From Streptomyces sp. NBC_00335 (GTDB lineage Bacteria; Actinomycetota; Actinomycetes; Streptomycetales; Streptomycetaceae), in assembly GCF_036127095.1 (NCBI RefSeq), contig NZ_CP108006.1:6377501-6441500 (forward strand): a DNA stretch of 64,000 nt, read 5' to 3'. The notes under the pieces are model-generated. The model searched no databases. It was given only the letters and a program-made list of their open reading frames with translations, and was not told where the DNA came from. A program made the position numbers and the translations under genes. Within the stretch, counting starts at the first letter, position 1, and each line of letters opens with the position of its first letter. This document shows positions 9,829-39,345 of this stretch, piece by piece.

Positions 9829-9859
9829 GCCCTGCGGGGCCGTCCCCTCCCCGCAGGGC
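9829..9859 (+). terminator. Hairpin terminator after the his operon
   Basis: GCCCTGCGGGG pairs perfectly with CCCCGCAGGGC (11 bp) around a 9-nt loop, immediately after the MFS stop codon. There is no U-tract, as is usual in Streptomyces. Confidence 0.7.
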
Positions 9860-9957
9860 CGACCCGGCCGCACCCGCCCACCGGGCCCCGAGCCGCGACG
9901 GCAGGGGCGACACCGCCGCCCGCCCACCGCCGGACGGAGTCCCGCGTCAGGAAGGCA

Positions 9958-10590: not shown

Positions 10591-10683
10591 GCGGGCCAGC
10601 CTACGGCCGGAACCCGCCCGGTGCCTGCCCATCAGGCGGACAGGGATCCATGATCGTCCCCCCGGCCCGGCACAATGGCTCCC

Positions 10684-18939: not shown

Positions 18940-19998
18940 ATGAACCTTGCCTTCATTCCCAGTCCGTCGACGGGCGTGCTCCATCTCGGGCCGATCCCGC
19001 TGCGCGGCTACGCGTTCTGCATCATCATCGGCGTCTTCGTCGCCGTCTGGCTCGGCAACAAGCGCTGGATCGCGCGCGGCGGTAAGCCGGGCACGGTCGC
19101 GGACATTGCCGTGTGGGCGGTGCCGTTCGGCCTGGTCGGCGGTCGCCTCTACCACGTGATCACCGACTACCAGCTCTACTTCGGCGAGGGCCGTGACTGG
19201 GTCGACGCCTTCAAGATCTGGGAGGGCGGCCTCGGCATCTGGGGCGCCATCGCGCTGGGCGCGGTCGGTGCCTGGATCGGCTGTCGCCGGCGGGGCATCC
19301 CGCTGCCGGCCTGGGCCGACGCCCTGGCTCCCGGCATCGCGCTGGCCCAGGCCTGCGGACGCTGGGGCAACTGGTTCAACCAGGAGCTGTACGGCCGCGC
19401 CACCGATCTGCCGTGGGCGGTGGAGATCACCGACGGCCCGAACCGGGTCGCCGGGACCTACCACCCGACCTTCCTCTACGAGTCCCTGTGGTGCGTCGGT
19501 GTCGCCCTGCTGGTGATCTGGGCCGACCGCCGCTTCAAGCTCGGACACGGGCGGGCGTTCGCGCTGTACGTCGCCGCGTACTGCGTGGGGCGCGGCTGGA
19601 TCGAGTACATGCGGGTCGACGAGGCCCACCACATCCTCGGCCTGCGGCTCAACGTCTGGACCTCGATCGTCGTGTTCGTGCTCGCCGTGGTCTACCTGGT
19701 GCTGTCGGCGAAGCTGCGGCCGGGCCGCGAGGAGGTCGTCGAACCGGACGCTGACGCCGGCGCCGTGGCCGGCGCCAAGGACGGGGACACCCCGGCCGGG
19801 GACGGAGCAGCCGAGGGCGACGAGGCCAAGTCCGAGGCCAAGTCCGACGCCGAGGCCAAGGACAAGACCGAGGACGAGACCGGCGCCAAGGACGGGGACA
19901 AGCCCGCGGGTGAGGTCGCCGCCGAGGCCGGGGACGAAGTCGCCGCCGAGGGCGGAGCCGACGGCAAGGCCGAGGCCCCCGGGGCCAAGAAGCTCTGA
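18940..19998 (+). CDS. lgt: Prolipoprotein diacylglyceryl transferase
   Basis: A 352-residue inner-membrane enzyme that attaches diacylglycerol to the lipobox Cys of prolipoproteins. Recognisable are LRGYAFCIIIGVF, VGGRLYHVITDY, the signature GIALAQACGRWGNWFNQELYG, YHPTFLYESLW, and a late GRGWIEYMRVDEAH. Seven membrane helices fit the sequence. Residues about 268-352 form an acidic Ala/Asp/Glu/Lys tail with no homologue in short Lgt proteins, probably cytoplasmic and disordered. A strong hairpin follows. Confidence 0.96.
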   Translation: MNLAFIPSPSTGVLHLGPIPLRGYAFCIIIGVFVAVWLGNKRWIARGGKPGTVADIAVWAVPFGLVGGRLYHVITDYQLYFGEGRDWVDAFKIWEGGLGIWGAIALGAVGAWIGCRRRGIPLPAWADALAPGIALAQACGRWGNWFNQELYGRATDLPWAVEITDGPNRVAGTYHPTFLYESLWCVGVALLVIWADRRFKLGHGRAFALYVAAYCVGRGWIEYMRVDEAHHILGLRLNVWTSIVVFVLAVVYLVLSAKLRPGREEVVEPDADAGAVAGAKDGDTPAGDGAAEGDEAKSEAKSDAEAKDKTEDETGAKDGDKPAGEVAAEAGDEVAAEGGADGKAEAPGAKKL

Positions 19999-20013
19999 CC
20001 GGAGCAACGGTCG

Positions 20014-20057
20014 AACGGGAGGGGCGTCGCGCACACCGCGCGGCGCCCCTCCCGTTT
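20014..20057. terminator. Bidirectional hairpin terminator between lgt and the CoA-ester lyase operon
   Basis: AACGGGAGGGGCG pairs with CGCCCCTCCCGTT, followed by a T. The inner CGCGC/GCGCG can extend the stem. It is placed between convergent genes and could stop both. Confidence 0.8.
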
Positions 20058-20131
20058 CGCGTGCGCCGGGTGGCGCGGGGCCGCGCCGCCGGCGGGCCGG
20101 CGGGCCCCGTGCCCGGGGCGGGCGGCCACCG

Positions 20132-20953
20132 TCAGGACAGCACCGGTGCGTCGCGGCGGGACAGGGCCACGACCCGTTCCGCGCCCGCCAGCATCGCCGG
20201 GTCGACGAAGCGGCCGTCGGGGAGGGCCACCGCGCCCGGGGTGCGGCGGGCCGCGGCCACGATCTCCTCGGCGGCGCTGACCTCCGCCGGGCCGGGCAGG
20301 TAGGCCCGCTCGATCACCGGGAGCTGGCGCGGGTGGATCGCCGCGCGGCCCAGGAAGCCGAGGGCGCGGCCCCGGGCGCAGGAGGCCGCCAGTGCCTCCA
20401 GGTTCCGGATGTCGGGGAACACCGACTGGGCCGGCGGCGCCAGCCCGGCCGCGCGGGCCGCGACCACCACCCGGGAGCGCGGCCAGTCCAGGCCCGACTC
20501 CGCGGTGACGCCCAGGTCGGCCCGCAGGTCCGCCTCGCCCAGGGACAGGCCGCGCAGGGCGGGGTGCGCGCGGGCGATCTCGTAGGCCCGTTCCACGCCG
20601 ATCGCCGATTCCAGCAGGGCGTACAGGGCCACCCCGGGGGTGCGGTCGGCGGTGGCGACGATCTGCTCCGGCGAGGAGATCTTCGGCAGCCGCAGTCCGG
20701 CGAGTCCCGGGAGCCCGCCCAGCGCGCTGAGGTCGGCGCCGCCCCAGGGGGAGTCCAGGGCGTTGACGCGGACGTGGACCGGTACCGGATGCCGGTCGCC
20801 GAGCCGTTCGGCGGTGGCGGCGCGGGCGTACTCCTTGCGGGAGGCCGACACCGCGTCCTCCAGGTCCACGATGACGGCGTCGGCCCCCGCGTGCAGGGCC
20901 TTCGACACCACCTCGGGGCGGTCGCCGGGTACGTAGAGCCAGGTCAGGATCAC
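20132..20953 (-). CDS. HpcH/HpaI-family CoA-ester lyase (CitE-like)
   Basis: A 273-residue citrate-lyase-beta-like barrel: LTWLYVPGDRPEVVSKAL, VIVDLEDAVSASRKEYAR, VHVRVNALDSPWG, LRLPKISSPEQI, ALLESAIGVERAYEIA and SLGEADLRADLG. The Arg, Glu and Asp of the Mg/CoA-ester site are present, and the C-terminal FLGRAAIHPRQLPVI is typical of malyl/citramalyl-CoA-type lyases. It starts at a GTG that overlaps the CaiB stop. It is the last gene of the seven-gene operon. The exact CoA-ester substrate is unknown. Confidence 0.88.
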   Translation of the reverse strand: MILTWLYVPGDRPEVVSKALHAGADAVIVDLEDAVSASRKEYARAATAERLGDRHPVPVHVRVNALDSPWGGADLSALGGLPGLAGLRLPKISSPEQIVATADRTPGVALYALLESAIGVERAYEIARAHPALRGLSLGEADLRADLGVTAESGLDWPRSRVVVAARAAGLAPPAQSVFPDIRNLEALAASCARGRALGFLGRAAIHPRQLPVIERAYLPGPAEVSAAEEIVAAARRTPGAVALPDGRFVDPAMLAGAERVVALSRRDAPVLS

Positions 20954-22227
20954 AGCGCCCCCTCCGTGCGGAGGGCGCTGACCTCGGCGGGGGAGAGGCC
21001 GATCTCGGCGAGGACGGCATCGGTGTCCGCGCCGTGCGGGCGGCCCGCCCAGCGGATCGAGCCCGGGGTCTGCGAGAGCCGGAACAGGACGTTCTGCATG
21101 CGGATCGGGCCCAGCTCCGGATCCTCGACCTCGGTGATGGTGTCCAGGGCCGCGTACTGCGGATCGGCCATGACGTCCCGTACGTCGTAGACCAGCGCGA
21201 CCGCGGCCTGGGCCTCCTCGAAGGCGGCCGTCACCTCGTCCGCCTTGTGGCGGGCGATCCAGCCGCCGACCGCCTCGTCGAGCACGTCCGCGTGAGCGGC
21301 CCGGCCGGAACCCGACGCGAACCACGGCTCGGAGATCAGCTCCGGCCGGCCCACGAGCCGCATCACGCGCTCGGCGATGGACTGGGCGGAGGTGGAGACC
21401 GCCAGCCAGCGGCCGTCCAGACTGCGGTACGTGTTGCGGGGCGCGTTGTTGGTGGAGCGGTTTCCGGTGCGCGGCTGGACGTAGCCGAGCTGGTCGTACC
21501 AGAGCGGGTGCGGGCCCAGAACGGTCAGGATCGGTTCGATGATCGCCAGGTCCACCACCTGCCCGTGTCCGGTGCGGTCCCGCCCGGCGAGCGCCGCCAT
21601 CACGGCGTACGCGGTGGTCAGCGCCGCGATCGAGTCCGCGAGCCCGAACGGCGGCAGGGTCGGCGGCCCCTCCGGCTCCCCGGTGATCGCCGCGAAGCCG
21701 CTCATCGCCTCCGCGAGGGTGCCGAAGCCGGGACGGTGGGCGTACGGGCCCTCCTGGCCGAAGGCCGTCACGCGGGTCAGGATCAGCCGCGGGTTCGCGG
21801 CGGACAGCTCGGGCCAGCCCAGACCCCAGCGCTCCAGGGTTCCGGGGCGGAAGTTCTCGATCACCACGTCGGCGGTGGCGACCAGGCGCAGCAGGGTGTC
21901 CCGGCCGCCGGGCCTGGACAGATCGAGGGTCATCGTCCGCTTGTTGCGGCCGAGCAGCTTCCACCAGAGGCCGATGCCGTCCTTGGCGGGACCGTGGCCG
22001 CGGGAGGGGTCGGGGCGGGTCGGGTGCTCGACCTTGACGACCTCGGCGCCGAAGTCGCCGAGGAGGGTGGCGGCGAGGGGACCGGCGAAGAGGGTGGCGA
22101 GATCGAGGACGCGGAGCCCGCGCAGGGGCGGGAGGGAGGGGGCGCCGGTGCCGGTTTCGGGTTCGGTTTCGGGGTCGGTCCCGGGCCCGGCCCCCGTCGC
22201 GGTGGTGTGCTGGCCGGTGGGGGTCAC
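20950..22227 (-). CDS. CaiB/BaiF-family (class III) CoA-transferase
   Basis: A 425-residue protein. A Thr/Glu/Pro-rich N-terminal 30 residues precede the family start LRGLRVLDLATLFAGPLAATLLGDFGAEVVKVEHP. Further motifs are WWKLLGRNKRTMTLDLSRP, ENFRPGTLERWGL, GFGTLAEAMSGFAAITG and FGLADSIAALTT; the Asp in LADS is the likely acyl-anhydride nucleophile. With the adjacent CitE-like lyase it suggests activation and then cleavage of an organic acid. GTG start in a 4-nt overlap with the kinase gene. Confidence 0.9.
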   Translation of the reverse strand: MTPTGQHTTATGAGPGTDPETEPETGTGAPSLPPLRGLRVLDLATLFAGPLAATLLGDFGAEVVKVEHPTRPDPSRGHGPAKDGIGLWWKLLGRNKRTMTLDLSRPGGRDTLLRLVATADVVIENFRPGTLERWGLGWPELSAANPRLILTRVTAFGQEGPYAHRPGFGTLAEAMSGFAAITGEPEGPPTLPPFGLADSIAALTTAYAVMAALAGRDRTGHGQVVDLAIIEPILTVLGPHPLWYDQLGYVQPRTGNRSTNNAPRNTYRSLDGRWLAVSTSAQSIAERVMRLVGRPELISEPWFASGSGRAAHADVLDEAVGGWIARHKADEVTAAFEEAQAAVALVYDVRDVMADPQYAALDTITEVEDPELGPIRMQNVLFRLSQTPGSIRWAGRPHGADTDAVLAEIGLSPAEVSALRTEGAL

Positions 22228-23129
22228 GAGGCGGCTCCGGAGCGGGCGAAGGTGTCGGTCTGGGAGCGGGTCGGCATCGAGTCCTGGGCGCCGGGGCGCT
22301 GTACGGACAGGGCGGCGGCTGCCGAGGCCCAGCTCAGGGCCTCGGGCATCGGCCGGCCCTCGCCCAGGGCCACGGCGAGCGCGCCGACGAAGGTGTCCCC
22401 GGCGGCGGTGGTGTCCACGGCCCGTACGCGCGGCGCGGGCACGGTCCGCGGCTCGCTGCCGCGGGCGGCGTACAGCACCCCGGCCGCGCCGAGGGTGACG
22501 ACCACCTCCGGCACGTCCTGGAGCAGGGCCGCCGCGGCCAGGCGGACGTCGGTGAGCCCGGTGAGCGCGGCGGCCTCGTGCTCGTTGGGGACCAACAGGT
22601 CGGTGGCGGCGAGGAGTTCGGCGGGCAGCGGCTGGGCGGGGGCCGGGGTGAGGATGGTCCGGACACCGTGCGCGCGGGCGGCGAGCGCGCCGGCGAGCAC
22701 GGCCTCCAGGGGCAGTTCGAGCTGGAGGAGCAGGGAGTCGGCGGCGCCGATGCGGGCGTCGTCGCCCGGTTCCAGGGAGGTGACGCGGGCGTTGGCGCCG
22801 GGGATGACGATGATGCTGTTGCCGCCCTCGTCGTCCACGGTGATGTGCGCGGTGCCGCTGGCGCCCTCGACGGTGCGCAGGGCCGCCGTCTCCACCCCTG
22901 CGCCGGCGAGCGCGGAGCGCAGCCGTACGCCGAACTCGTCGGCCCCGACCGCACCGATCATCACCACCTCCGCGCCGCAGCGGGCCGCGGCGACGGCCTG
23001 GTTGGCGCCCTTGCCGCCGGGAACGGTGCGGAACTCGCGGCCGGTGACGGTCTCCCCGAGGCGGGGGGCCTTGGAGACGTAGGCGACGAGGTCCATGTTG
23101 GTACTGCCGAGCACGGCGATGGCCGTCAT
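22224..23129 (-). CDS. rbsK: Ribokinase (PfkB family)
   Basis: A 301-residue sugar kinase. VLGSTNMDLV and PGGKGANQAVAAARCGAEV form the sugar-binding N-terminus. VTLGAAGVLY precedes DTTAAGDTFVGALAV, the anion-hole/catalytic-Asp signature. The length and GGKGANQA favour a ribokinase over a fructokinase. Placed directly after four ADP-ribosylglycohydrolases, it could phosphorylate released ribose. E. coli has a comparable kinase-hydrolase pairing in yegU-yegV. Confidence 0.9.
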   Translation of the reverse strand: MTAIAVLGSTNMDLVAYVSKAPRLGETVTGREFRTVPGGKGANQAVAAARCGAEVVMIGAVGADEFGVRLRSALAGAGVETAALRTVEGASGTAHITVDDEGGNSIIVIPGANARVTSLEPGDDARIGAADSLLLQLELPLEAVLAGALAARAHGVRTILTPAPAQPLPAELLAATDLLVPNEHEAAALTGLTDVRLAAAALLQDVPEVVVTLGAAGVLYAARGSEPRTVPAPRVRAVDTTAAGDTFVGALAVALGEGRPMPEALSWASAAAALSVQRPGAQDSMPTRSQTDTFARSGAAS

Positions 23130-25816
23130 GAGCGGGCTGCCTCCTGTGCGGTGAGGTGGGCGAGGGTGTCGAAGCCGATGCCGTCGAAGCCGGGGACGGT
23201 GGTGGCGAGGCGGTTCTTCAGCGGGGCGGTCCAGCGGTGCGGGATGGCGTCGGGGGAGCCGGCGATCAGTCCGGCGAGGGCGCCCGCGGTGGCGCCGTTG
23301 GAGTCGGTGTCCCAGCCGCCGGAGACGGCGCGGCAGACGGAGTGGGTGAAGTCCCCGTCGGCGTGGGTGAGGGCGGCGGCGATCACGGCGGTGTTGGGAA
23401 CGGCGTGGACCCAGTGGTAGTGGCCGTAGCGGGCGTGGAGCAGGTCCACGACGGTATCGAAGTCGGCGGCGGTGGCGTGCGCGTCGCAGGCCGTCCGGAT
23501 CCCGAAGCGGACGGCCTCGGCGAGGCGGGAGCGGGGCGGTACGACGGCCAGGCCGGCCCGGAGCGCGGTGTGCACGTCGGCCCGGCCGGTGGCCGCGGTG
23601 GCGGTGGCGGCGGCCACGAACGTGGCGGCGTGGACGCCGTTGCCGGTGTGGGTGAGGGCGGCGTCCCGGTACGCCTGGGCCGCGGCGGCGGCCGGGGCGC
23701 CCGGGTTGGTCCAGCCGTGGACGTCGGCGCGGATCAGGGCGCCGATCCATTCGCGGAAGGGGTTGTGGTGGGTGGCGGTCGCCGGGGGCTCCAGCCCCTG
23801 GAGGAGATTGCGGTACGCGACCCGCTCGGCCGTGAACGTACGGCCGGCCGGGAGCTCGTCGAGCCACAGCCGGCCGACGTCGGCGGTGGTGAAGCCCTTG
23901 CCGTGGCGCTGGAGGAGGAGCAGCCCGAGGAGGGGGTAGTTGAGGTCGTCGTCCTCGGGGGTGCCGTCGATGTTCTCGGCGAGGGAGGTGGGTGCGGAGC
24001 GGCGGTTCCAGGGGTGGGCGGCGAGTACCTCCGGTGGTACGCCGCGTTCGGTGAACCAGTCGGCCAGGGGCCAGTTTCCGGCGGCCCGGGCCAGGGTGCG
24101 GATCCCGTGCAGGGGGAGCTTCTCCACGGGCTTGCCGAGGACGCAGCCGACGGCGCGGCCGAGCCATGCGGCCTCCAGCCGCCGCCGCAGGGCGGTGTCC
24201 TGGGCGGCCGGTCCCGGCCGGGCCCCTGCGAAGCCGGCGCCGGGTCGGGACCCGGGTCGGGACCCGGGTCGGGCCTCGGGTCGGGCCTCGGGTGTGGCCT
24301 CGGGGCCGGGCCCGGGGGCAGGCGTGGCCTTGGGTCCGGCCTCGGCGCTGGGGCCGCTCTCGGCGCTGGGGCCGCTCTCGGCCCTGGGTCCGGCCTCGGC
24401 CCTGGGTCCGGCCTCGGCCCTGGGTCCGGCCTCGGCGCTGGGTCCGGCCTCGGCGCTGGGTCCGGCCTCGGCGCTGGGTCCGGCCTCGGCGCTGGGTCCG
24501 GCCTCGGCGCTGGGTCCGGCCTCGGCCCTGGGTCCGGCCTCGGCCCTGGGTCCGCTCTCGGCCTGGGGCACGGTCCGGGACCCGGCCCCGGGCATGGACT
24601 CTGCCTTGGGCACGGACTCCGTCTCAGGCGCGGTGCCGGTCCTGGCCTCAGGCGCGGGTCCGGTCCCGGCCCCGGCCTCAGGCGCGGGTCCGGCCTCAGG
24701 TACGGACTTGGGTGCGGCCCCGGTCTGTGGCACGGCCTCGGCTCCGGCTCTGGGCGCGGCCCCGGCCCCGGCCCCGGCCTCGGCCTCGGCCTCGGGTTCT
24801 GGGCGGTGGGGCGGGGTGAGGGAGGGTTCCCCCGCCCCGCCCCTTCCCGAAACCAGGGGCAGGCCCCTGGACCCCGGGTCACCGGAGCCGTCTCCACCTG
24901 GTTCGGGGGGTGAGGGGAGGGCCGCCAGGGCCGTCAGGAGGTCGGTGGCCAGGGCTCGGAGTTCCGGCGGGGCCGGGGTGGGGGAGGCGCCCGCCCGGGC
25001 CGGCGCGAGGTGGCCGCCCGCCGCCAGCCAGACGCGCAGCAGCGGCTCCGCAGCCTCTCCGCGGCCGTCCTCGGCGGCCTGCCGGAACTCGTGGCCGACC
25101 AGATCCTCGGGCTGCACCCAGGTGAGCCGGACGGGCCCGCCGGGCCCGGATCCGGGTGGCGGGGCCGTTCCGCCGCTCTGGGGGGACCGTCCGGGTCCGG
25201 GGACGGGGCCCGTCTCGTCGTTCGGGGCGGGCCGTCCGGGTCCGGGGGTGGGGGCCGTTTCACCGTTCGGGGCGGGCCGACCCGGTCCGGGGGTGGGGCT
25301 CGTCCGGTCGTTCGGGGCGGGCCGGTCCGGTCCGGGGGTGGGGGCCGGTACGCCGTTAGGGGCGGGCGGACCCGGGGGCACGGGGTCCAGGGGCTCGCCC
25401 CTGGTTTCGGGAAGGGGCGGGGTGGGGGAATTCCCGCCCCCGGCCCCGCCCCCGGCCCGGCCCGGGTCGGAGGCGGGCGCAGGCGGGGCCGAGCCGGGCG
25501 TCCCTGCTCCCGTGGCTCCGTGGTGGCCCAGGCCCGGGGCCGGGCCCGAGGGCGGGGAGGTGGGTGTTGGCGGGGCCGCGGGTGTGGCCTGGGTTGGGGA
25601 AGGCGGCCGGGGTGCGTGGGTGCTCGGGTCCCCGTGCGGGGGTGGGGAGGTGGGTGTTGGCGGGGCCGCGAGTGTGGCCTGGGTTGGGGAAGGCGGCCGG
25701 GGTGCGTGGGTGCTCGGGTCCCCGGGCGGGGGCGGGGGCGGGGAGGTGGGCGTTGGCGGGGCCGTCGGTGTGGCCCGGGCGGGGGAGGGGGGCGGCGCCG
25801 GCCAAGTGGGGGTCAT
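23126..25816 (-). CDS. ADP-ribosylglycohydrolase-family protein with about 540-residue low-complexity N-terminal region
   Basis: An 896-residue protein. The C-terminal 360 residues (from ALRRRLEAAWLGRAVGC) are an ADP-ribosylglycohydrolase domain with a TPEDDDLNYPLLG metal motif and GGWDTDSNGATAGALAG, matching the C-terminal D-x-D-S/T Mg site. The first 540 residues are Pro/Ala/Glu/Gly repeats around a small ordered-looking segment (LTWVQPEDLVGHEFRQAAED, about residues 225-300). The repeats are 30-residue, 15-residue and 6-residue units in order. Two palindromic elements are translated within it. The ATG sits in the 4-nt overlap with the preceding hydrolase. The family removes ADP-ribose from proteins or nucleic acids, or cleaves ribosides. 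Confidence 0.85.
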   Translation of the reverse strand: MTPTWPAPPPSPARATPTAPPTPTSPPPPPPGDPSTHAPRPPSPTQATLAAPPTPTSPPPHGDPSTHAPRPPSPTQATPAAPPTPTSPPSGPAPGLGHHGATGAGTPGSAPPAPASDPGRAGGGAGGGNSPTPPLPETRGEPLDPVPPGPPAPNGVPAPTPGPDRPAPNDRTSPTPGPGRPAPNGETAPTPGPGRPAPNDETGPVPGPGRSPQSGGTAPPPGSGPGGPVRLTWVQPEDLVGHEFRQAAEDGRGEAAEPLLRVWLAAGGHLAPARAGASPTPAPPELRALATDLLTALAALPSPPEPGGDGSGDPGSRGLPLVSGRGGAGEPSLTPPHRPEPEAEAEAGAGAGAAPRAGAEAVPQTGAAPKSVPEAGPAPEAGAGTGPAPEARTGTAPETESVPKAESMPGAGSRTVPQAESGPRAEAGPRAEAGPSAEAGPSAEAGPSAEAGPSAEAGPSAEAGPRAEAGPRAEAGPRAESGPSAESGPSAEAGPKATPAPGPGPEATPEARPEARPGSRPGSRPGAGFAGARPGPAAQDTALRRRLEAAWLGRAVGCVLGKPVEKLPLHGIRTLARAAGNWPLADWFTERGVPPEVLAAHPWNRRSAPTSLAENIDGTPEDDDLNYPLLGLLLLQRHGKGFTTADVGRLWLDELPAGRTFTAERVAYRNLLQGLEPPATATHHNPFREWIGALIRADVHGWTNPGAPAAAAAQAYRDAALTHTGNGVHAATFVAAATATAATGRADVHTALRAGLAVVPPRSRLAEAVRFGIRTACDAHATAADFDTVVDLLHARYGHYHWVHAVPNTAVIAAALTHADGDFTHSVCRAVSGGWDTDSNGATAGALAGLIAGSPDAIPHRWTAPLKNRLATTVPGFDGIGFDTLAHLTAQEAARS
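24333..24566 (-). repeat. 18-bp tandem repeat encoding a six-residue unit, about 13 copies
   Basis: Thirteen successive near-identical 18-bp units encode GP(S/R)AEA or GP(S/R)AES in the linker of the long hydrolase. Unit variation (S to R, A to S) is clustered at the two ends, as expected of slippage or unequal crossing-over. Confidence 0.9.
24820..24877 (-). repeat. Palindromic element copy A, inside a coding region
   Basis: Read on the minus strand it contains CCAGGGG-CCTG-CCCCTGG, then GTTTCGGGAAGGGGCGGG and a GGGGGAACCC end. It resembles palindromes I know from Streptomyces intergenic regions, but it lies in frame here, coding for GLPLVSGRGGAGE. Confidence 0.75.
25190..25375 (-). repeat. 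45-bp tandem repeat encoding a 15-residue unit, four copies
   Basis: Units of the form TPGPGRPAPN(D/G)ETAP follow one another in the low-complexity region. Copies diverge progressively toward the C-terminal end, where VPGPGRSPQSGGTAP is the most altered. Confidence 0.8.
25381..25440 (+). repeat. Palindromic element copy B, inverted relative to copies A and C
   Basis: Plus-strand CCAGGGG-CTCG-CCCCTGG, then GTTTCGGGAAGGGGCGGG and TGGGGGAATTCCC. It is translated from the opposite strand as NSPTPPLPETRGEPLDPV without a stop. Confidence 0.75.
25558..25790 (-). repeat. 90-bp tandem repeat, three copies (last partial), encoding a 30-residue unit
   Basis: TGGGTGTTGG recurs at 25561, 25651 and, as TGGGCGTTGG, at 25747, giving periods of 90 and 96 bp. 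Copies 1 and 2 are nearly identical over the whole unit, which implies recent duplication. The unit contains GDPSTHAPRPPSPTQAT. Confidence 0.9.
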
Positions 25817-27000
25817 CGGGGGGCCGTCAGGGTGGCGAAGGCGGCCTCGTGGGTGCGGCGGCGGGAGTGGTCGCGGGTGAAGATCTCCCGGGTCACCGAG
25901 GCCAGAGCCGACGCCGGGGCGCGCAGGTCCAGGCGGCTGGCCTCCGCGACCCGGTCCGCCCAGGCGGGCGGGACCGCGGCCCCGCCCGACAGGGCGCCCG
26001 CGATCGCACCGGCCATGGTCGCGATGGAGTCGCAGTCCCGGCCGTAGTTGACCGCGCCGAGCACGGAGGTCTCGTAGCAGCCGTCGGCGACGAGCAGCAT
26101 GCCGAGCGCCACCGGGAGTTCCTCGATGGAGTGCAGGCGCGAGGGGCGCCGTGCGCCCAGGGAGGGGGCGCGGTAGTCCGGGCCGACCGAGTCGTACGGG
26201 GCGACCGCCGCCCGCAGGGGGGCCAGCGCCGACTCGAAGTCCCGGTGGCGGGCGGCGACTTCGCACACCGCCGCGATGGCCGCGCGGGTGCCGTCCTTGG
26301 CCAGGGAAAGGGCCGTTTCGACCACCGAGGCCGCCGTCGCACCCGGCACGCAGGCCGCCGCCACCGCCGCCGCGAACACGCCCGCCGCCTCCCGCCCGTA
26401 CGAGGACTGGTGCGCGCCCGTGACGTCCAGCGCCTCCGCGTACGCCCCGGCCGGATTGCCCGCGTTGACGAGCCCGACCGGCGCCATGTACATCGCCGCG
26501 CCGCAGTTGACGATGTTGCCGTTGCCCGCCTCCCGCGGGTCCGCGTGGGCGTAGTGCAGCCGGGTCACGATCCACTTCTCGGCGAGGAAGATCCGCTGGA
26601 GGGGGAGGGCGTCCGCCTCCAGTTCCGGGATCCAGCGGGGGACCGTCATCAGGTCCGGCACCAGGTGCTCGGCGATCGCGTACGCGTCCAGGTGGTCCCG
26701 TACGGCCTCGTAGACCCGTACCAGCGCGTGCGTCATCAGGGTGTCGTCGGTGACGTGGCCGTCGCCCTTGTGGTACGGCGCGATCGGGCGGGCGGTGCGC
26801 CAGTCCTCGTGCCACGGGCCGACGATGCCGCGCACCCGGCCGCCGTGCCGCTCCACGATCTGTTCCGGGGTCCAGCCCTCCACCGGGCCGCCCAGCGCGT
26901 CGCCGACGGCCGCGCCGACGAGGGCGCCGGTGATCCGGTCGTCCAGGGAGGGGGAGGTGGGGGTCGAGGTGCTCTGGGGGAAGGGGGTCAGGGTCGTCAT
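25813..27000 (-). CDS. ADP-ribosylglycohydrolase-family protein, compact form
   Basis: A 395-residue protein that is nearly all catalytic domain. RITGALVGAAVGDALGGPVEG opens the fold, GHVTDDTLMTHAL (TDDT at 84-87) gives the first metal ligands, and NYGRDCDSIATMAGAIAGAL (about 318-336) gives the second. All expected Mg ligands appear present, so this copy should be active. A Ser/Thr/Pro N-terminus of about 18 residues precedes the domain. It is coupled by ATGA overlaps on both sides. Confidence 0.92.
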   Translation of the reverse strand: MTTLTPFPQSTSTPTSPSLDDRITGALVGAAVGDALGGPVEGWTPEQIVERHGGRVRGIVGPWHEDWRTARPIAPYHKGDGHVTDDTLMTHALVRVYEAVRDHLDAYAIAEHLVPDLMTVPRWIPELEADALPLQRIFLAEKWIVTRLHYAHADPREAGNGNIVNCGAAMYMAPVGLVNAGNPAGAYAEALDVTGAHQSSYGREAAGVFAAAVAAACVPGATAASVVETALSLAKDGTRAAIAAVCEVAARHRDFESALAPLRAAVAPYDSVGPDYRAPSLGARRPSRLHSIEELPVALGMLLVADGCYETSVLGAVNYGRDCDSIATMAGAIAGALSGGAAVPPAWADRVAEASRLDLRAPASALASVTREIFTRDHSRRRTHEAAFATLTAPR

Positions 27001-29387
27001 GTCCGGGGCTTTCCTTGGGGCTTGGGTGAGGTGAGTTCCGTACGGGTGAGCAGTGCGGCCAGTTCGACGAGGTCGGTGCCCGCCAGGCGGGGGAGGGCGC
27101 AGCCGGAGAGGGTGCGGCACGCTTCGCGCCAGGCGGCGGGGAGCGAGTCGCCGCCGCCGAGGGCGCCGGTCAGCGCGCCGGCGAGGGCGGGGGCGGAGTC
27201 CGCGACGCGCGACAGGCAGGCGGCGGCCGGGACCGCCTCGCCGACCCGGCCGCGGGCGGCGGTGGCGAGGGCGAGGGCCACGGGGACGGTTTCCGCGGCG
27301 GCGATCCCGTAGCTGTAGACGTGGTCGACGATCTGGTGCTCCAGGAGCGGGACGATGGCGAAGGCCCCGCCGGTCGCGGCCGTCTCGGCGCGGGCGAGTT
27401 TCACCGCGTGCCGGGCGTTGCGGCCGATCTCGGTGGACTCCGGCAGCTGCGCGAGGGCGGCGTCGACGGCGGCGTCGGTGTCGGAGGCGGTGCAGGTTCC
27501 GGTGCTCGCGAGGGCGGTGGCGATGGCGGCGGCCATGGCGCGGGCGCCGTGGACCCCGTCGCCGTCCTGGGTGTAGCGGGCGTCGAACTCGGCGAGGTCC
27601 GCGGCGGCCTCGGGGTCCCCGGGATGGACGACGGCCAGGACGCAGGCCCGGATGCAGGCGGCGTCGTCGAAGTAGTGCGGGTTGTCGTGGCCGGTGGCGG
27701 GCGGGCGCAGGCCGGCGGCGAGGTTGCCGAGGCCGGCGCGGACGGAGATCCGGGCGCGCAGGGGCAGGACGGCGGACTCGACCTCGGGCGCGCGTTCCGC
27801 CGCCGCGGCGACCTCGCTGGCCAGGGCGTTCCAGGCCAGGTCGATGGCGGCGCGCATGCGGCGGGACCGGGAGAGGTCGCTGAGCAGCACGCCGGCGGCG
27901 GTGAGGACGGACTCGGCGGCGAAGGCGGCCCACTCGGCGTCGTCGGAGGGGCCGAGGCGCAGCGGCTCCGGGGGCTGGTTGAGGGCGATGGGGACGGGGA
28001 GGGTGGTGGTGGCGTTCTGCTCGGCGAAGGTGTCGAGCTCGCGGGTGAGGCGGCGGGTCCACTCGGGCATGCGGCTGGCCCGGTGGCGGGCGGCGGGCCA
28101 CCCGGCGGCGTCGCCCGCGGCGAGCCCGAGCAGCAGCCCCTCGATCCGGCGGGGCCCTTCGGGGGCGGGCCCGGGGGCCGGCGCGGTACGGGGCTCGGCG
28201 GTGGCGGTGGCGATGGCCGTGGCCGTGGCCGTGGCCGTACGGGGCTGCGCGTCCCGCGGCGCGGGTCCCGGCGGGGACGTGTGGGGCGGGGCGTCGGCGG
28301 GTCCTGACGGGGCGGTGAGCGGGCCGCCCGTGACCTCCGCCGGGGCGGTGCGGGCCGCGGGGCCGGGGTTGGTCCAGGCCCCTGGCGGGGCGCTGCGGGC
28401 CGCCGTGCGGGGCGGGGTGCCGTCCGGGCCCGGCGTGGCTTCCGCCGGGGCGGTGCCGGGCCGCGCGGTCCCGCTCGCGGCGCCGGTCGCCGGGGCGTCC
28501 CGGCCGGAGGCGGTCCCCTTCCGGGGCGGGGTGTCGCCCCCGGTTCCCCGGCCGGGCGCGTCCACCACCACCGCGCCGGCGGTACGGGGCTGCGTGCGAG
28601 GCGGGGCGTCGTGCCCGGTGGGGGCCGGCTCCGGGGCGGGGGGACTCTCCCCGTACCCGCCCCTTCCCGAAACCGGGGGCAGGCCCCCGGGCCCCCGGAC
28701 CGGCGCCGGTGCCTCCGCCGGCCCGGGGGCGGCGGTCGCGGCGCGGAGGAACCCGGGCACCGGCGTACCGGCGATCCCCGGGCCCCGGGCGGGCTCGGGG
28801 CGACCGCCCGCGGGGGCGACGGCCCCGCCCGCCTCCCGGCCGTCGGCGGGCCGGGTCGGGGTGTCGTCCTCCGGGGTCCGCTCGGTTCGGGCGTCGGCCC
28901 GAGCGGCGTCCTGGCGGGTGGCCGGCCCGGTCGGGGTGTCGCCCTCCCGGGTCCGAGCGGCCTCCCGGTCGTCGGCCGGCCTGGTCAGGGTGTCGTCCTC
29001 CGGGGTCCGCTCGGTCCGGGCGTCGGGCTGAGCGGCCTCCCGGTCGTCGGCCGGCCGGGTCAGGGTGTCGTCCCCCGGGGTCCGCTCAGACCGGGCGTCG
29101 GGCCGCGCGGCGTCCTGGCGGGTGGCCGGCCCGGTCGGGGTGTCGCCCTCCGGGGTCCGAGCGGCCTCCCGGGCGTCGGCCCGAGCGGCCTCCCGGCCGT
29201 CGGCCCGAGCGGCCTCCCGGCCGTCGGCCGGCCGGGTCAGGGTGCCGTCCTCCGGGGCCCGCTCAGACCGGGCGTCGGCCCGCGCGGCGTCCTGGCGGGT
29301 GGCCTTCTCGGGTGCGGTGTCGTGTGGGGGAGGCGGGTTGGTGGGAAGCGGGGTGGTGGGGGGCGGGGTGGTCGGAGTCAGGGTCAT
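26997..29387 (-). CDS. Degenerate ADP-ribosylglycohydrolase-like protein with about 410-residue disordered N-terminus
   Basis: A 796-residue protein. Residues 1-410 are Asp/Arg/Ala/Glu/Thr/Pro-rich repeats (DARSERTPEDDTLTRPAD-like units) plus palindromic element copy C. From RIEGLLLGLAAGDAAGW the domain is recognisable, with DDAACIRACVLA and FDARYTQDGDGVHGARAMA. However, the TDDT region reads LGPSDDAEWAAFA, and the C-terminal metal loop reads CLSRVADSAPALAGAL, without the G-x-D-x-D core. It is probably catalytically weak or dead and may act as a regulatory or scaffold paralogue. The ATG lies in the overlap with the upstream hydrolase. Confidence 0.8.
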   Translation of the reverse strand: MTLTPTTPPPTTPLPTNPPPPHDTAPEKATRQDAARADARSERAPEDGTLTRPADGREAARADGREAARADAREAARTPEGDTPTGPATRQDAARPDARSERTPGDDTLTRPADDREAAQPDARTERTPEDDTLTRPADDREAARTREGDTPTGPATRQDAARADARTERTPEDDTPTRPADGREAGGAVAPAGGRPEPARGPGIAGTPVPGFLRAATAAPGPAEAPAPVRGPGGLPPVSGRGGYGESPPAPEPAPTGHDAPPRTQPRTAGAVVVDAPGRGTGGDTPPRKGTASGRDAPATGAASGTARPGTAPAEATPGPDGTPPRTAARSAPPGAWTNPGPAARTAPAEVTGGPLTAPSGPADAPPHTSPPGPAPRDAQPRTATATATAIATATAEPRTAPAPGPAPEGPRRIEGLLLGLAAGDAAGWPAARHRASRMPEWTRRLTRELDTFAEQNATTTLPVPIALNQPPEPLRLGPSDDAEWAAFAAESVLTAAGVLLSDLSRSRRMRAAIDLAWNALASEVAAAAERAPEVESAVLPLRARISVRAGLGNLAAGLRPPATGHDNPHYFDDAACIRACVLAVVHPGDPEAAADLAEFDARYTQDGDGVHGARAMAAAIATALASTGTCTASDTDAAVDAALAQLPESTEIGRNARHAVKLARAETAATGGAFAIVPLLEHQIVDHVYSYGIAAAETVPVALALATAARGRVGEAVPAAACLSRVADSAPALAGALTGALGGGDSLPAAWREACRTLSGCALPRLAGTDLVELAALLTRTELTSPKPQGKPRT
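28641..28699 (-). repeat. Palindromic element copy C, inside a coding region
   Basis: The minus strand has CCGGGGG-CCTG-CCCCCGG, then GTTTCGGGAAGGGGCGGG. It is translated as GGLPPVSGRGGYGES. Orientation and frame match copy A. Confidence 0.75.
28850..29300 (-). repeat. Imperfect tandem repeats in the third hydrolase's linker
   Basis: The text GxRSERTPEDD-TRPADxREA and DTPTGPATRQDAARADA recurs about four to five times with substitutions and truncated units. The repeated DNA keeps one reading frame throughout. Confidence 0.75.
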
Positions 29388-30370
29388 CGGGGGGTCTCGG
29401 TTTCCGGGGTGAGGAGGTCCGCGATGTCCAGGACGTGGTAGCCGCGCATCGAGGGGAGGCAGCTTCCGCGGACCGGGCCGATCACCGAGGACCAGGCGGC
29501 CGGGATGGCGGGGGCGCCGGACATGGCGCCGGCGAGCGCGCCCGCCACGGCCGCCGTGGTGTCCGCGTCGCGGCCCATGTTGACCGCCATGAGGACCGAG
29601 GAGGCGAAGTCGCCGCCGCACGCGGCGAACGCGCCGAAGGCGAGGCCGACCGCCTCGGGGGCCAGGTCCGTCCAGGGGTAGCCGCCGATGACCACCGCCG
29701 AGCGGACCGCCCGCTCGCCGCGCGGGGCGGCCGTCACGGCCCGGCGCAGGGAGCGGGCCGTCCAGGAGTCGGAGGGGATGACGGAGAGGGCCGCCGAGAT
29801 GACGGAGGCCGCGGAGCCCCCGGCCATCGCCGCGGCGACCCCGGCCGCGACGGCCTGGCCGCCGTAGATGCCCTCGCCGTCGTGGCTGACGCAGCCGTCG
29901 ATGGCGACGAGCCGGGCGGCTTCGGCCGGGCGGCCCGCCGCGAAGACGCCGAAGGGGGCCGCCCGCATGGCCAGACCGTCCGACCAGGCGTGCCGGTGCT
30001 GGGCGGAGATGGGGGCCGCCAGCCCCCGGCGGAGGTTCTCCAGGGTGCCGCGTTCCGAGAAGCCCGCACCGCGGAACGGGCCTTCGTCCAGGTCCGCGAT
30101 CCAGTGGTGCCACGCCCGTTCGACGTGGGCGACCGTCAGCGCCGACCCGTGTCGGGCCAGCAGCAGGCCCGAGAAGATCGCGTACTCCGTATCGTCCGTG
30201 CCCGCCGGGTCGTCCGAGACGAAGCCCTCGATCCGGCCCCACTTCGCCCGGATCTCCGAGGGCTTCATGTTCTCCGCGGGGGCGCCCAGCGCGTCACCCA
30301 CCGCGAGTCCGAGAAGAGCGCCCCGGGCCCGTTCGAGGAGGACCTGCGGATTGCATGCAATCAGCTCCAT
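29384..30370 (-). CDS. ADP-ribosylglycohydrolase-family protein, first gene of the operon
   Basis: A 328-residue protein comprising only the catalytic domain. ARGALLGLAVGDALGAPAENM opens it, DPAGTDDTEYAIF gives TDDTE at 58-62, HDGEGIYGGQAVAAG sits mid-domain, and NMGRDADTTAAVAGALAG gives the C-terminal metal site at 266-273. It is the best-conserved of the four and should be active. The start ATG has GGAGAGG upstream. It is divergent from the VIT1 gene across a 268-bp intergenic region, the only place an operon promoter could lie. Confidence 0.92.
   Translation of the reverse strand: MELIACNPQVLLERARGALLGLAVGDALGAPAENMKPSEIRAKWGRIEGFVSDDPAGTDDTEYAIFSGLLLARHGSALTVAHVERAWHHWIADLDEGPFRGAGFSERGTLENLRRGLAAPISAQHRHAWSDGLAMRAAPFGVFAAGRPAEAARLVAIDGCVSHDGEGIYGGQAVAAGVAAAMAGGSAASVISAALSVIPSDSWTARSLRRAVTAAPRGERAVRSAVVIGGYPWTDLAPEAVGLAFGAFAACGGDFASSVLMAVNMGRDADTTAAVAGALAGAMSGAPAIPAAWSSVIGPVRGSCLPSMRGYHVLDIADLLTPETETPR
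30349..30362. promoter_or_regulatory. 14-bp perfect palindrome at the start of the hydrolase operon
   Basis: GATTGCATGCAATC is self-complementary and AT-richer than its surroundings. It falls within codons 3-8 of the first hydrolase gene. A candidate operator by symmetry only. Confidence 0.35.
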
Positions 30371-30567
30371 GGCGCGCCTCTCCACTTGATGGGACTCATA
30401 TTGAGCCCTTGGGGGATTTGTGCCATGGCATGTGGTTTGTCGCTCGTCGCGAAACACCCGCCGCAGGTCCCCGTCACCCGGTCGCCGATCCCCAAAACCC
30501 CAGGTAAGTACGGCCTTCCTTGCTGGCGGGCGGCAAAAATCGTGCGTAGTTTCGAGGTGTTCAGGGG

Positions 30568-30615
30568 GAGTGGGTGTCCGCGCGTCGTCCATGGCACAGC
30601 TCTGTGCACCCACTC
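30568..30615 (+). promoter_or_regulatory. Long inverted repeat in the VIT1 leader
   Basis: GAGTGGGTG (30568-30576) pairs perfectly with CACCCACTC (30607-30615) around a 30-nt loop that contains CACAG-CT-CTGTG next to the right arm. It ends 23 nt before the VIT1 ATG, so it could be a 5'UTR structure or operator. The rest of the 30371-30638 gap holds only TGCCATGGCA (30421-30430) and weak promoter-like sequence. Confidence 0.4.
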
Positions 30616-30638
30616 GTACAAAAGGGGAGATAGCCGGA

Positions 30639-31370
30639 ATGTCCATCATCGATATCGAAGCGCCGCTTCACACCGCCCACCGCACCAACCACACCCACCG
30701 TGACGTCAACGGCGGATGGCTGCGCCCGGCGGTCTTCGGTGCGATGGACGGGCTCGTCTCCAACCTCGCGCTGATGACCGGTGTGGCCGGCGGCGCCGTC
30801 GCCCCGCACGTCATCGTCGTCACCGGCCTGGCCGGCCTCGCCGCCGGAGCCTTCTCCATGGCGGCGGGGGAGTACACCTCGGTCGCCTCGCAGCGCGAGC
30901 TCGTGCTCGCCGAACTGGACATAGAGCGCCAGCAGTTGCGCAAGCACCCCATCGACGAGATGGAGGAGCTGGCCGAGCTCTACGTCTCGCGCGGCGTCGA
31001 GCCGGCGCTGGCCCGCGAGGTGGCCATGCAGCTCTCCCGCGACCCGGAGCAGGCGCTGGAGATCCACGCCCGCGAGGAGCTCGGGATCGACCCGGACGAC
31101 CTGCCGTCGCCGATGGTCGCCGCCGTGTCCTCCTTCGGATCGTTCGCGCTCGGCGCGCTCGTCCCGCTGCTGCCCTACCTGCTCGGCGCGACCGTCCTGT
31201 GGCCCGCGGTGCTCGCGGCCCTGGTGGGGCTCTTCGCCTGCGGCGCGGTGGTCTCCCGGGTCACGGCCCGCTCCTGGTGGTACAGCGGGCTGCGCCAGCT
31301 CGTCCTGGGTGGCGCGGCCGCGGGTGTGACGTACATCCTGGGAACCTGGATCGGTGGAGCCGTAGGCTGA
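30639..31370 (+). CDS. VIT1/CCC1-family metal transporter
   Basis: A 243-residue membrane protein. DVNGGWLRPAVFGAMDGLVSNLALMTGVAGG is the family start with the Asp metal site. GLAAGAFSMAAGEYTSVASQRE is the conserved second helix. A cytosolic Glu-rich helical region (DEMEELAELYVSRGVEPALAREVAMQL) matches the metal-binding domain, and three more helices follow. The family moves Fe(II) or Mn(II) out of the cytosol. AAAGGGGAGA upstream serves as ribosome binding site. Confidence 0.92.
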   Translation: MSIIDIEAPLHTAHRTNHTHRDVNGGWLRPAVFGAMDGLVSNLALMTGVAGGAVAPHVIVVTGLAGLAAGAFSMAAGEYTSVASQRELVLAELDIERQQLRKHPIDEMEELAELYVSRGVEPALAREVAMQLSRDPEQALEIHAREELGIDPDDLPSPMVAAVSSFGSFALGALVPLLPYLLGATVLWPAVLAALVGLFACGAVVSRVTARSWWYSGLRQLVLGGAAAGVTYILGTWIGGAVG

Positions 31371-37868: not shown

Positions 37869-38651
37869 TCAGGCTTCGGGCGCGAACTCGTACTGGAGCT
37901 CGTACAGGTGGCCTGCCTTCACCATGACGGTGACCTCGATCGGCTGTCCCTCCGCGCCGTAAACCGCACGGAGGGTCCGCAGGACGGGGAGGTCGCCGGG
38001 TAGCCGTAGGGCGGTGTACTGCTCCTGCGTCGCGACGCGGGCGGAGAGCCGGTCCATGCTGTGGCGGGGTGGGAAGCCGAGTTCCGTCAGCAGGGTCGGA
38101 GTGCCGCCCCGGATCCGGCGGGGTTCCGCGAGGGCGGTGCCGCGCGCGAGGTCCGGCGGGTAGTACGAGCTCACCAGCTCGGCGGGTTCGCCCTCGATGG
38201 TGATCAGCTGGCGTCTGCACACGGCCGCACTGCCCTCGGGGAGGCCGAGAGCGGCGGCGACATCACCGACGACGGACACCTCTTCCACTGCCAGCAACGT
38301 GCTGTGTGCCGCGCGGGCCGGTTCCGATGCTTCGGTGAGCCATGGGTAGGACGCCCCATCCACGGCGGGCGTGAGGGAGCCTGAAGGGCGGACGGTCCGC
38401 TGCCGGGTGTCTCGTACGGTCACTGCCGCGCCCGCACGGCCCAGAGCCAGTCCCTCGTCCTTGAGGAGCCGGACGGCCTTCTGGATCGTTGCGTTGGAGG
38501 CGTCGAACCGGGATTTCAGCTGTGACGTCGAAGGCAGCTTCGATCCGGGTGCGAGGTCGCCGTTCATGATCTCGTCCCGCAGATCGGCGGCGATGCGGGC
38601 ATGGAGCGGCCGGGGGTCGGGGCCTGCGGCTTCGGAACTGGACAGGGTCAT
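37869..38651 (-). CDS. GntR-family transcriptional regulator (HutC/UTRA type)
   Basis: A 260-residue regulator. Residues about 13-80 form the winged helix-turn-helix (PLHARIAADLRDEIMNGDLAPGSKLPST, then SNATIQKAVRLLKDEGL). A UTRA effector domain follows (VCRRQLITIEGEPAELVSSYYPPDLARGT, then PIEVTVMVKAGHLYELQYEF). It overlaps by 4 nt the upstream gene, which encodes a UTRA domain alone. No metabolic gene is in the same operon, so the ligand is unknown. Confidence 0.9.
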   Translation of the reverse strand: MTLSSSEAAGPDPRPLHARIAADLRDEIMNGDLAPGSKLPSTSQLKSRFDASNATIQKAVRLLKDEGLALGRAGAAVTVRDTRQRTVRPSGSLTPAVDGASYPWLTEASEPARAAHSTLLAVEEVSVVGDVAAALGLPEGSAAVCRRQLITIEGEPAELVSSYYPPDLARGTALAEPRRIRGGTPTLLTELGFPPRHSMDRLSARVATQEQYTALRLPGDLPVLRTLRAVYGAEGQPIEVTVMVKAGHLYELQYEFAPEA

Positions 38652-39196: not shown

Positions 39197-39345
39197 GGTG
39201 CCTCCCGAGTGTCCGTCGCTGTCTGCCGGTGCCCACGTTAAGCGACGCCTCCGCGCTATCCCAGCCTGCAAACCTTGCCGCTTTTCGCGAATAGCGATAC
39301 GTTCTGTGAGGCCTTGGAAGCTCAGCGTTAAGGCGGTGGGGTGCT

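What the first reader, a model, noticed from the sequence alone, without database searches (positions are those of the whole stretch)
20132..30370. Seven-gene coupled operon with four ADP-ribosylglycohydrolases, ribokinase, CoA-transferase and CoA-ester lyase
All six junctions are 4-nt overlaps, so the products are probably made in fixed ratio. Four paralogous hydrolases of one superfamily in one transcript is unusual. Family knowledge: DraG/ARH enzymes cleave ADP-ribose or ribosides, and E. coli pairs one with a PfkB kinase (yegU-yegV). I infer a dedicated pathway: hydrolysis of an ADP-ribosylated or ribosylated substrate, ribose phosphorylation, then CoA activation and cleavage of the released acid or base. 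No transporter or ADP-ribosyltransferase is in the operon.
Basis: partly seen in the sequence, partly recalled or inferred. Interest (0 to 1): 0.78.

Follow-up and report, generated by a model that had tools for sequence, protein, structure and literature searches.

The report
Sugar-uptake operon built on ADP-ribosyl hydrolase relatives
A conserved Streptomyces gene cluster with four relatives of ADP-ribose-removing enzymes appears to be the remnant of a sugar-type uptake-and-breakdown operon shared with other soil bacteria, which suggests that some of these proteins digest a sugar conjugate and do not edit proteins or RNA.

Summary
In detail: seven minus-strand genes (30370 to 20132), all six junctions 4-nt overlaps, four ARH/DraG proteins (PF03747), a ribokinase, a class III CoA-transferase-like protein and a CitE-like lyase. 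It is a conserved Streptomyces locus (SCO2028 onward in S. coelicolor) with no assigned function.

The new evidence is the operon's history. In 13 of 14 loci read from other actinobacterial families the cluster directly follows a LacI repressor, two sugar permeases and a solute-binding protein. Nine of 80 Streptomyces loci keep that importer, two of them at this same chromosomal site. Nine of nine rhizobial plasmid loci read pair LacI and importer with two ARH proteins; seven also carry the CoA-transferase and six the lyase.

This favours a catabolic pathway for a sugar-like conjugate over reversal of macromolecular ADP-ribosylation. Cautions: g2 has lost a metal-ligand Asp in all 96 rows compared and looks like a fixed pseudoenzyme; g6 lacks the usual catalytic Asp. 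The ribokinase is absent in a quarter of Streptomyces loci and lies beside the operon in only two of nine rhizobial loci, so "ribose" is inferred. The substrate is unknown.

The parts
29384..30370 (-). g1: ARH-superfamily hydrolase, 328 aa, motifs intact (E33, T58-D59-D60-T61, D268-x-D270-T271)
   Evidence: PF03747 202.4 bits; Streptomyces rows with letters: E 69 of 69, DD 69 of 70 (one row broken), DxD 70 of 70; other families 16 of 16 for each; nearest solved structure DraG
26997..29387 (-). g2: ARH-fold protein with 416-aa low-complexity N-terminal extension; likely pseudoenzyme (V728 in place of the first Asp of DxD, A433 in place of Glu)
25813..27000 (-). g3: ARH-superfamily hydrolase, 395 aa, motifs intact (E41, T84-D85-D86-T87, D322-x-D324-S325)
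   Evidence: PF03747 168.5 bits; conserved in 81 of 81 Streptomyces and 14 of 14 other rows; orthologues in rhizobia 42-44%
23126..25816 (-). g4: ARH-superfamily protein with 548-aa Pro/Ala/Gly-rich N-terminal extension; variant motif P-E-D-D-D plus D836-x-D838-S839
   Evidence: PF03747 156.1 bits at 549-860; DDD and both Asp of DxD conserved in 80 of 80 Streptomyces and 17 of 17 other rows; repeats in the extension
22224..23129 (-). g5: ribokinase (PfkB family); the least constant member of the operon
   Evidence: TIGR02152 319.2 bits against cut-off 299.65; absent in 14 of 61 Streptomyces loci; where it is absent g4 and g6 overlap directly in 17 of 18 loci
20950..22227 (-). g6: CoA-transferase family III-like protein; Gly169 where four of the five nearest solved relatives shown have Asp, with Glu173 four residues on
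   Evidence: PF02515 405 bits; Gly in 77 of 78 Streptomyces rows and 11 of 11 other rows with letters; the one Asp row is from L074, which has two g6-like genes; PDB alignments
20132..20953 (-). g7: CitE/RipC-like CoA-ester lyase (HpcH/HpaI family)
   Evidence: PF03328 114.6 bits; RipC 146 bits, below its cut-off 375; R62, E115 and D142 conserved in 77 of 77 and 12 of 12 rows
30371..30419 (.). Interval between g1 and the VIT-family ORF; in two Streptomyces loci (L025, L083) LacI, two permeases and a solute-binding protein lie between these two genes
   Evidence: the true start of the VIT gene may lie further in, so the interval may be longer

Best explanation
The seven genes are the enzyme half of an ancestral LacI-regulated, CUT1 ABC-fed catabolic operon for a small sugar-like conjugate. 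Shown by sequence: gene order, relatives, importer linkage elsewhere and its absence here, motif states. Inferred: the conjugate enters the cell (in this strain by another route, or it is made inside); the metal-dependent ARH proteins g1, g3 and g4 cut its glycosidic bond or bonds, with g2 as a non-catalytic ARH-fold partner, probably of g1; the freed sugar, probably ribose, is phosphorylated by g5 or by a housekeeping kinase; the freed carboxylic acid, probably a beta-hydroxy acid of the citramalate or hydroxymethylglutarate kind, is made into a CoA thioester by g6 and split by g7 into a short acyl-CoA plus an oxo-acid. Core: importer plus g3- and g4-type ARH proteins; the kinase and the CoA pair are separable modules.
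For: LacI, two permeases and a solute-binding protein lie directly upstream of the ARH genes in 13 of 14 g3-bearing loci from other actinobacterial families; the 14th, L162, starts at a contig end (Pfam for L147 and two more binding proteins). Nine of 80 Streptomyces loci keep this importer, two of them (L025, L083) between the VIT gene and g1 at this same site. Nonomuraea has LacI-perm-perm-SBP-g1-g2-g3-g4-g5. Rhizobial plasmids: LacI-perm-perm-SBP-ARH-ARH-ATPase in 9 of 9 loci read (of 20 non-Nonomuraea records matched), g6-like in 7 and g7-like in 6 of 9; the two loci without both (L182, L189) have a g5-like match divergent beside LacI. The rhizobial second ARH (699 aa) has about 400 further residues with a weak Laminin_G match below cut-off. 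A solute-binding orthologue occurs in 23 of 31 g3-positive but 4 of 90 g3-negative Streptomycetaceae genomes. LacI scores highest against RbsR, below its cut-off. None of the five other ARH genes of this genome lies in such an operon.
Against: The window's genome has no solute-binding orthologue (best 24% identity; none at 1e-60); with it, 8 of 31 g3-positive genomes lack one, so import by this system is not required everywhere. The CoA pair is missing from L150, from the Nonomuraea locus and from two of nine rhizobial loci, and g5 is often missing, so the downstream chemistry may not be one pathway. g6 lacks the usual catalytic Asp. No substrate is identified, and the only assay data I saw for this locus are negative.
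Confidence: 0.6

Rival explanations
1. The four ARH proteins reverse endogenous ADP-ribosylation of proteins or nucleic acids in Streptomyces; the CoA genes and the kinase are metabolic passengers.
For: g1 is nearest to DraG among solved structures and keeps all motifs. The S. coelicolor genes are listed as putative ADP-ribosyl hydrolases (PMC9411070 and PMC5087735, passages). In the window's strain no importer orthologue was found.
Against: Conserved linkage to LacI and a sugar importer, and to CoA enzymes, in two phyla. No ADP-ribosyltransferase among the ten flanking proteins scanned. SCO2028 and SCO2030 showed no activity on U-alpha-ADPr (one substrate only).
Confidence: 0.13
2. After losing the importer the operon was turned to an internal substrate in many Streptomyces: clearance of damaged or by-product ribosides such as nucleotide or cofactor breakdown products.
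For: The enzymes persist in streptomycete loci without a linked importer (g3 at 76-92%, g2 mostly at 72-98% identity to the window). Of 22 g3-positive genomes of the window's genus (one, G110, by a partial match), 14 have an unlinked solute-binding orthologue and 8 have none at 1e-60. The unlinked importer genes nest inside the streptomycete clade.
Against: The unlinked importer may still serve the pathway in 14 of 22; another sugar importer could have taken over in the rest. I found no marker of the supposed internal substrate.
Confidence: 0.17
3. Incidental clustering: separate riboside, CoA-acid and kinase modules that share a regulator but no common substrate.
For: Modules separate: Nonomuraea keeps importer and g1-g5 with no g6 or g7 in the 21 kb read; rhizobial L182 and L189 have a kinase match but no g6 or g7; L154, L155 and L160 have g1-g2-type pairs with LacI and permease genes without the CoA pair; g6 relatives sit elsewhere with other partners.
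Against: g6-g7 adjacency and their linkage to g3/g4-type ARH genes recur in Actinomycetota and Alphaproteobacteria, and g4 joins g6 directly when g5 is absent (17 of 18).
Confidence: 0.1

Closest known systems
S. coelicolor SCO2028-SCO2031 (uncharacterised DraG/ARH homologues)
   Same: Four consecutive ARH genes; g1-g4 most likely correspond to them one to one (inferred from order between gltB and trp genes; locus numbers of neighbours recalled, not checked)
   Different: The papers seen treat them as ADP-ribosyl hydrolases; the operon context, importer history and g2 degeneration are not in the passages I read
E. coli yegTUV with GgaR (YegW)
   Same: Transporter, ARH-family protein, PfkB kinase and a regulator in one module; function of the enzymes unsettled (PMC10819704, abstract and passages)
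   Different: MFS transporter and GntR regulator, one ARH protein, no CoA enzymes; linked by its authors to ADP-glucose and glycogen
DraG / ARH3 ADP-ribosyl hydrolases
   Same: Family profile, metal motifs in g1 and g3, fold modelled for g2
   Different: Those act on ADP-ribosylated proteins or nucleic acids; these belong to a sugar-importer operon type, and g2 lacks a metal-ligand Asp
CoA-transferase plus citramalyl/malyl-CoA lyase pairs (e.g. itaconate RipC)
   Same: g7 is of the CitE/RipC family with conserved R62, E115, D142; g6 is class III-like
   Different: g7 is far below the RipC and citE cut-offs; no hydratase in the operon; g6 has Gly at the catalytic Asp position
LacI-controlled CUT1 ABC sugar operons
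   Same: Regulator-permease-permease-binding protein order in relatives
   Different: The intracellular hydrolases are ARH-superfamily proteins, not one of the usual glycoside hydrolases; importer and regulator lost in the window

Membership tests
ARH/DraG superfamily (PF03747) | Profile match over the curated cut-off | tested here: met
   g1-g4: 202, 109, 169, 156 bits against 26.2
ARH/DraG superfamily (PF03747) | All-helical ARH fold in the divergent member g2 | tested here: met
Catalytic ARH (metal-ligand Asp pairs and Glu; residue roles recalled) | E..., TDDT, DxDT/S in g1 and g3; variant in g4 | tested here: met
   Conserved in nearly all rows; g4 has PEDDD and DTDS
Catalytic ARH (metal-ligand Asp pairs and Glu; residue roles recalled) | Same motifs in g2 | tested here: not met
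   First Asp of DxD absent in 80 Streptomyces and 16 other-family rows; Glu kept only in L154 and L155, 2 of 16 other-family rows
ADP-ribosyl hydrolase (activity) | Releases ADP-ribose from protein or nucleic acid | not testable with these tools
   Literature: SCO2028 and SCO2030 inactive on U-alpha-ADPr; other substrates not reported in the passages read
Ribokinase | TIGR02152 equivalog cut-off | tested here: met
   319.2 against 299.65 bits; below a second ribokinase model, NF008353 (281.4 against 341)
Class III CoA-transferase | Family profile PF02515 | tested here: met
   405 bits
Class III CoA-transferase | Catalytic Asp after G-[FY] (role recalled) | tested here: not met
   Gly in 77 of 78 and 11 of 11 rows; four of five nearest PDB chains shown have Asp, one benzylsuccinate CoA-transferase subunit has Gly
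RipC / CitE lyases | NCBIfam equivalog cut-offs | tested here: not met
   RipC 146.2 of 375, citE 139.5 of 443.4
yegTUV-like riboside module | Transporter and regulator in the same operon | tested here: not met
   Absent beside the operon in the window; present in relatives

The most novel reading that the evidence does not exclude
A branch of the ARH superfamily has become a set of intracellular glycoside-type hydrolases for an imported sugar conjugate, working with a conserved ARH pseudoenzyme partner, and feeds an acid through an unusual CoA-transferase (Gly where the Asp is expected, Glu one helical turn on) and a CitE-like lyase; the same pathway exists in Actinomycetota and rhizobia and has survived loss of its importer in Streptomyces.
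Probability: 0.4. Interest if true: 0.75.

Novelty: new variant of a known kind. Interest (0 to 1): 0.6.

Why it matters
S. coelicolor's many DraG-like and macrodomain hydrolase genes are cited as a sign of lively ADP-ribosylation metabolism (PMC5087735, passage). If four of its eight listed DraG/ARH genes (PMC9411070) belong to a carbohydrate pathway, that count is misleading, and these enzymes need glycoside substrates to be assayed. It would widen what the ARH fold does, give a ready genetic system (importer, repressor, enzymes) for finding the substrate, and offer a CoA-transferase active-site variant and an ARH pseudoenzyme to study. My literature searches found no report of ARH genes in a sugar-importer operon of this kind (open-access text only, judged from listings).

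Tried and rejected
Fixed-ratio translation: not supported, since the g2/g3 overlap is conserved in only 24 of 80 loci.

Recent cluster or chance assembly: rejected; the gene order is old and g1, g2, g3 and g4 each form one group across families in the tree (support 97/92, 74/69, 100/100, 99/87). In that tree I meant to include the five other ARH proteins of this genome, but my extraction took wrong frames (end branches 4-8); I ignore those five rows.

Importer kept elsewhere in this strain: best solute-binding hit 24%, none at 1e-60. The permeases and LacI were not searched in it.

No kinase at all in rhizobia: my first reading, wrong. A late check found a g5-like match in 2 of 9 rhizobial loci (L189, 43% over 301 residues; L182, 58% over only 71), divergent and next to LacI, in the two loci that lack g6 and g7. 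This helps the ribose idea a little; I left the odds as they were.

Unlinked importer loci in other Streptomyces: six neighbours scanned in two of ten loci (a glycosyltransferase, an APH-family protein, an exonuclease, two SAV2148-like proteins, an rRNA methylase) show nothing catabolic. The unlinked binding proteins nest within the streptomycete importer clade, so relocation is likely; whether they serve this pathway is open.

Extra 638-aa gene found in 7 of 14 relatives between g5 and g6 (fused to the kinase in L162): C-terminal FGE-sulfatase domain in the two scanned; AlphaFold model too poor (pLDDT 48.2), so no fold search was made.

Promoter and terminator scan of 19900-30800: nothing found, uninformative for Streptomyces.

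The g3 protein search showed 120 of 6139 rows; where a name was given it was Streptomyces or 'Actinobacteria bacterium', so it did not reach distant relatives. L156 gave no gene calls (the caller assumes high G+C).

Papers: PMC13036486, PMC9411070, PMC5087735, PMC5036795, PMC11833690 and PMC10819704 were seen as passages found by search terms only (plus the abstract of PMC10819704); the rest as listings.
Full report
WHAT IS THERE. The window is part of a 9.0-Mb Streptomyces-type genome (nearest relative among the loci compared, Streptomyces sp. AP-93, 92-98% for g1-g7). Seven minus-strand genes run from 30370 to 20132 with a 4-nt overlap at each of six junctions. g1-g4 carry PF03747, g5 is a ribokinase, g6 a CoA-transferase family III protein and g7 an HpcH/HpaI (CitE-like) protein. 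g2 and g4 have long low-complexity N-terminal extensions (416 and 548 residues, Pro/Ala-rich, with DNA tandem repeats); in relatives these vary widely in length by a crude measure, so they are probably flexible tails. Codon-position G+C in them stays high at position 3 (0.93 and 0.85), so I take them as coding. Downstream lie lgt, a DsbA-like gene and trp genes; upstream, divergent, a VIT-family gene and gltB/gltD.

CONSERVATION IN STREPTOMYCES. A scan with g3 gave 80 Streptomyces loci (best 80 of 491). Of the 61 that hold both the VIT gene and lgt, 61 have g1-g4, g6 and g7 by similarity; 47 have g5. Where g5 is missing, g4 and g6 usually overlap directly (17 of 18). In a sample of 121 Streptomycetaceae genomes, g3 is present in 31, in 3 of 17 genera. 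In S. coelicolor the four ARH genes are almost certainly SCO2028-SCO2031, listed as uncharacterised DraG/ARH homologues (PMC9411070). SCO2028 and SCO2030, which I infer to be g1 and g3, had no activity on uracil-alpha-ADP-ribose (PMC13036486).

THE IMPORTER. In other families of the class the same cluster exists. In 13 of these 14, LacI, two permeases and a solute-binding protein lie directly upstream in the same direction (Pfam for L147 plus two further binding proteins). The 14th (L162) begins at a contig end. The order g1 to g7 holds wherever the genes were called, except in L153 (g6-g7, importer, g3-g4-g1-g2). g6 and g7 are present in 12 of 14 (L149 is cut by the contig end, L150 is without), g5 in 11 of 14. 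The LacI protein scores best against the ribose repressor RbsR, but below its cut-off (191.6 against 531 bits). In Streptomyces, 9 of 80 loci have the importer set upstream of g1. Two of them, L025 and L083, keep it between the VIT gene and g1 at the same chromosomal site as the window, so the window's arrangement is most simply derived by loss. Across 121 Streptomycetaceae genomes a solute-binding orthologue (E at most 1e-60) occurs in 23 of 31 g3-positive and 4 of 90 g3-negative genomes. By the coordinates in these two calls it is next to g3 in the 9 positives of the two other genera, and far from g3 or on another contig in the 14 positives of the window's genus (one of which, G110, has only a partial g3 match). 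The window's genome and 7 more have none. A tree of 34 solute-binding proteins places the unlinked ones inside the streptomycete clade, consistent with relocation.

ACROSS PHYLA. tblastn of g3 against plasmids found 21 records, 20 of them rhizobial or related, one Nonomuraea. I read nine of the 20: all nine have LacI, two permeases, a solute-binding protein, a g3 orthologue, a second, longer ARH protein and a UgpC-type ATPase in that order; g6-like in 7 of 9 and g7-like in 6 of 9 (L188 reads in pieces). A g5-like match lies divergent beside LacI in 2 of 9, L189 and L182 (in L182 only 71 residues), which are the two without g6 and g7. g3 identity to the window is 42-44%, g6 45%, g7 about 30% (two loci). 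The longer ARH has roughly 400 further residues with a weak Laminin_G match below cut-off, a hint of a carbohydrate-binding fold and no more. Nonomuraea (L187) has LacI, importer and g1-g5, without g6 or g7 in the 21 kb read.

CONTROL. The five other PF03747 genes of this genome were read with 20-kb surroundings. None is in an operon with importer or CoA genes; one (L197) has importer-like genes 5-9 kb away on the other strand. One (L194) follows PnuC-, NadR- and Nudix/NrtR-like genes, the kind of setting expected for real NAD or ADP-ribose metabolism. The operon's ARH proteins therefore keep different company.

ACTIVE SITES. g1 and g3 keep the Glu, TDDT and DxDT/S motifs in all or nearly all rows; g4 keeps a variant (PEDDD, DTDS); g2 has no Asp at the first position of DxD in any of 80 Streptomyces rows (78 Val, two unreadable) and 16 other-family rows, and keeps the Glu only in L154 and L155. 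Residue roles are recalled from ARH3 and DraG work; titles name E41, D77 and D314 mutants. The g2 model is a confident ARH fold. So g2 is a conserved ARH-fold protein unlikely to bind two metals normally. It follows g1 in the clusters where both were called, and g1-g2-type pairs also occur with LacI and permease genes but without the rest (L154, L155; with a g4-like ARH and a kinase in L160), which suggests a g1-g2 partnership. g6 has Gly169 where four of the five nearest solved CoA-transferases shown have Asp, with Glu173 one helical turn on; the change is shared by rhizobial, Rhodococcus and Haloferax relatives. The only Streptomyces row with Asp is from L074, which has two g6-like genes. 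In Haloferax a g6 relative sits beside a hydroxymethylglutaryl-CoA lyase gene, in Rhodococcus in a locus with a CoA ester lyase, so activity on beta-hydroxy-acid CoA esters is plausible; a Sphingomonas relative has neither beside it. g7 keeps R62, E115 and D142 in every row.

INTERPRETATION. The most economical reading is a catabolic operon for an imported sugar-like conjugate: ARH proteins cut it, kinase and CoA enzymes dispose of the pieces. The order and the recurrent partners are shown; the substrate, the bond and the CoA chemistry are inferred. Core and options separate: importer plus g3/g4-type proteins is the most constant part, g6/g7 next, g5 least. The loss of the importer in the window's lineage leaves open an internal substrate or another importer.

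NOVELTY. Searches of open-access papers found the S. coelicolor genes only as putative ADP-ribosyl hydrolases and no description of this operon type. The components are known kinds; the combination, with ARH proteins as the hydrolases of a sugar-importer operon, one of them a fixed pseudoenzyme, is a new variant.

Noticed in passing
L194: 7076-12120 (own genome, G000:C1 about 6.735-6.740 Mb): Another ARH gene (9611-10648) directly follows PnuC-, NadR- and Nudix/NrtR-like genes and precedes two RlaP (RNA repair) family genes: a likely NAD or RNA-repair module with a real ADP-ribose-type ARH.
   Followed up: partly
L147: 14547-16463 and L162: 2648-5638: A 638-aa protein with an FGE-sulfatase domain sits between g5 and g6 in 6 of 14 other-family loci and is fused to the kinase in a seventh, L162; function unknown, model poor.
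   Followed up: partly
L160: 3877-12527: Second ARH cluster in one genome: PfkB kinase, permeases, g4-like ARH and LacI, divergent from a g1-g2-type pair, without CoA genes.
   Followed up: partly
L182 about 5194-5406 and L189 about 4340-5239: g5-like kinase matches divergent from LacI in the two rhizobial loci that lack g6 and g7: kinase and CoA pair seem to replace each other there. In L182 only a fragment matched.
   Followed up: no
window 37869-39271: Two adjacent UTRA-domain regulator genes downstream of gltD; only the first (37869-38651) showed a GntR helix-turn-helix in the frame scanned.
   Followed up: no
window 24241-25793 and 28814-29377: GC-rich tandem repeats encode the low-complexity N-terminal extensions of g4 and g2; extension lengths vary widely among Streptomyces.
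   Followed up: partly
genome sample: Six genomes of the window's genus listed without g3 (22 have it): five are small (5.8-6.4 Mb) and one is 7.1 Mb, suggesting loss in reduced genomes.
   Followed up: no
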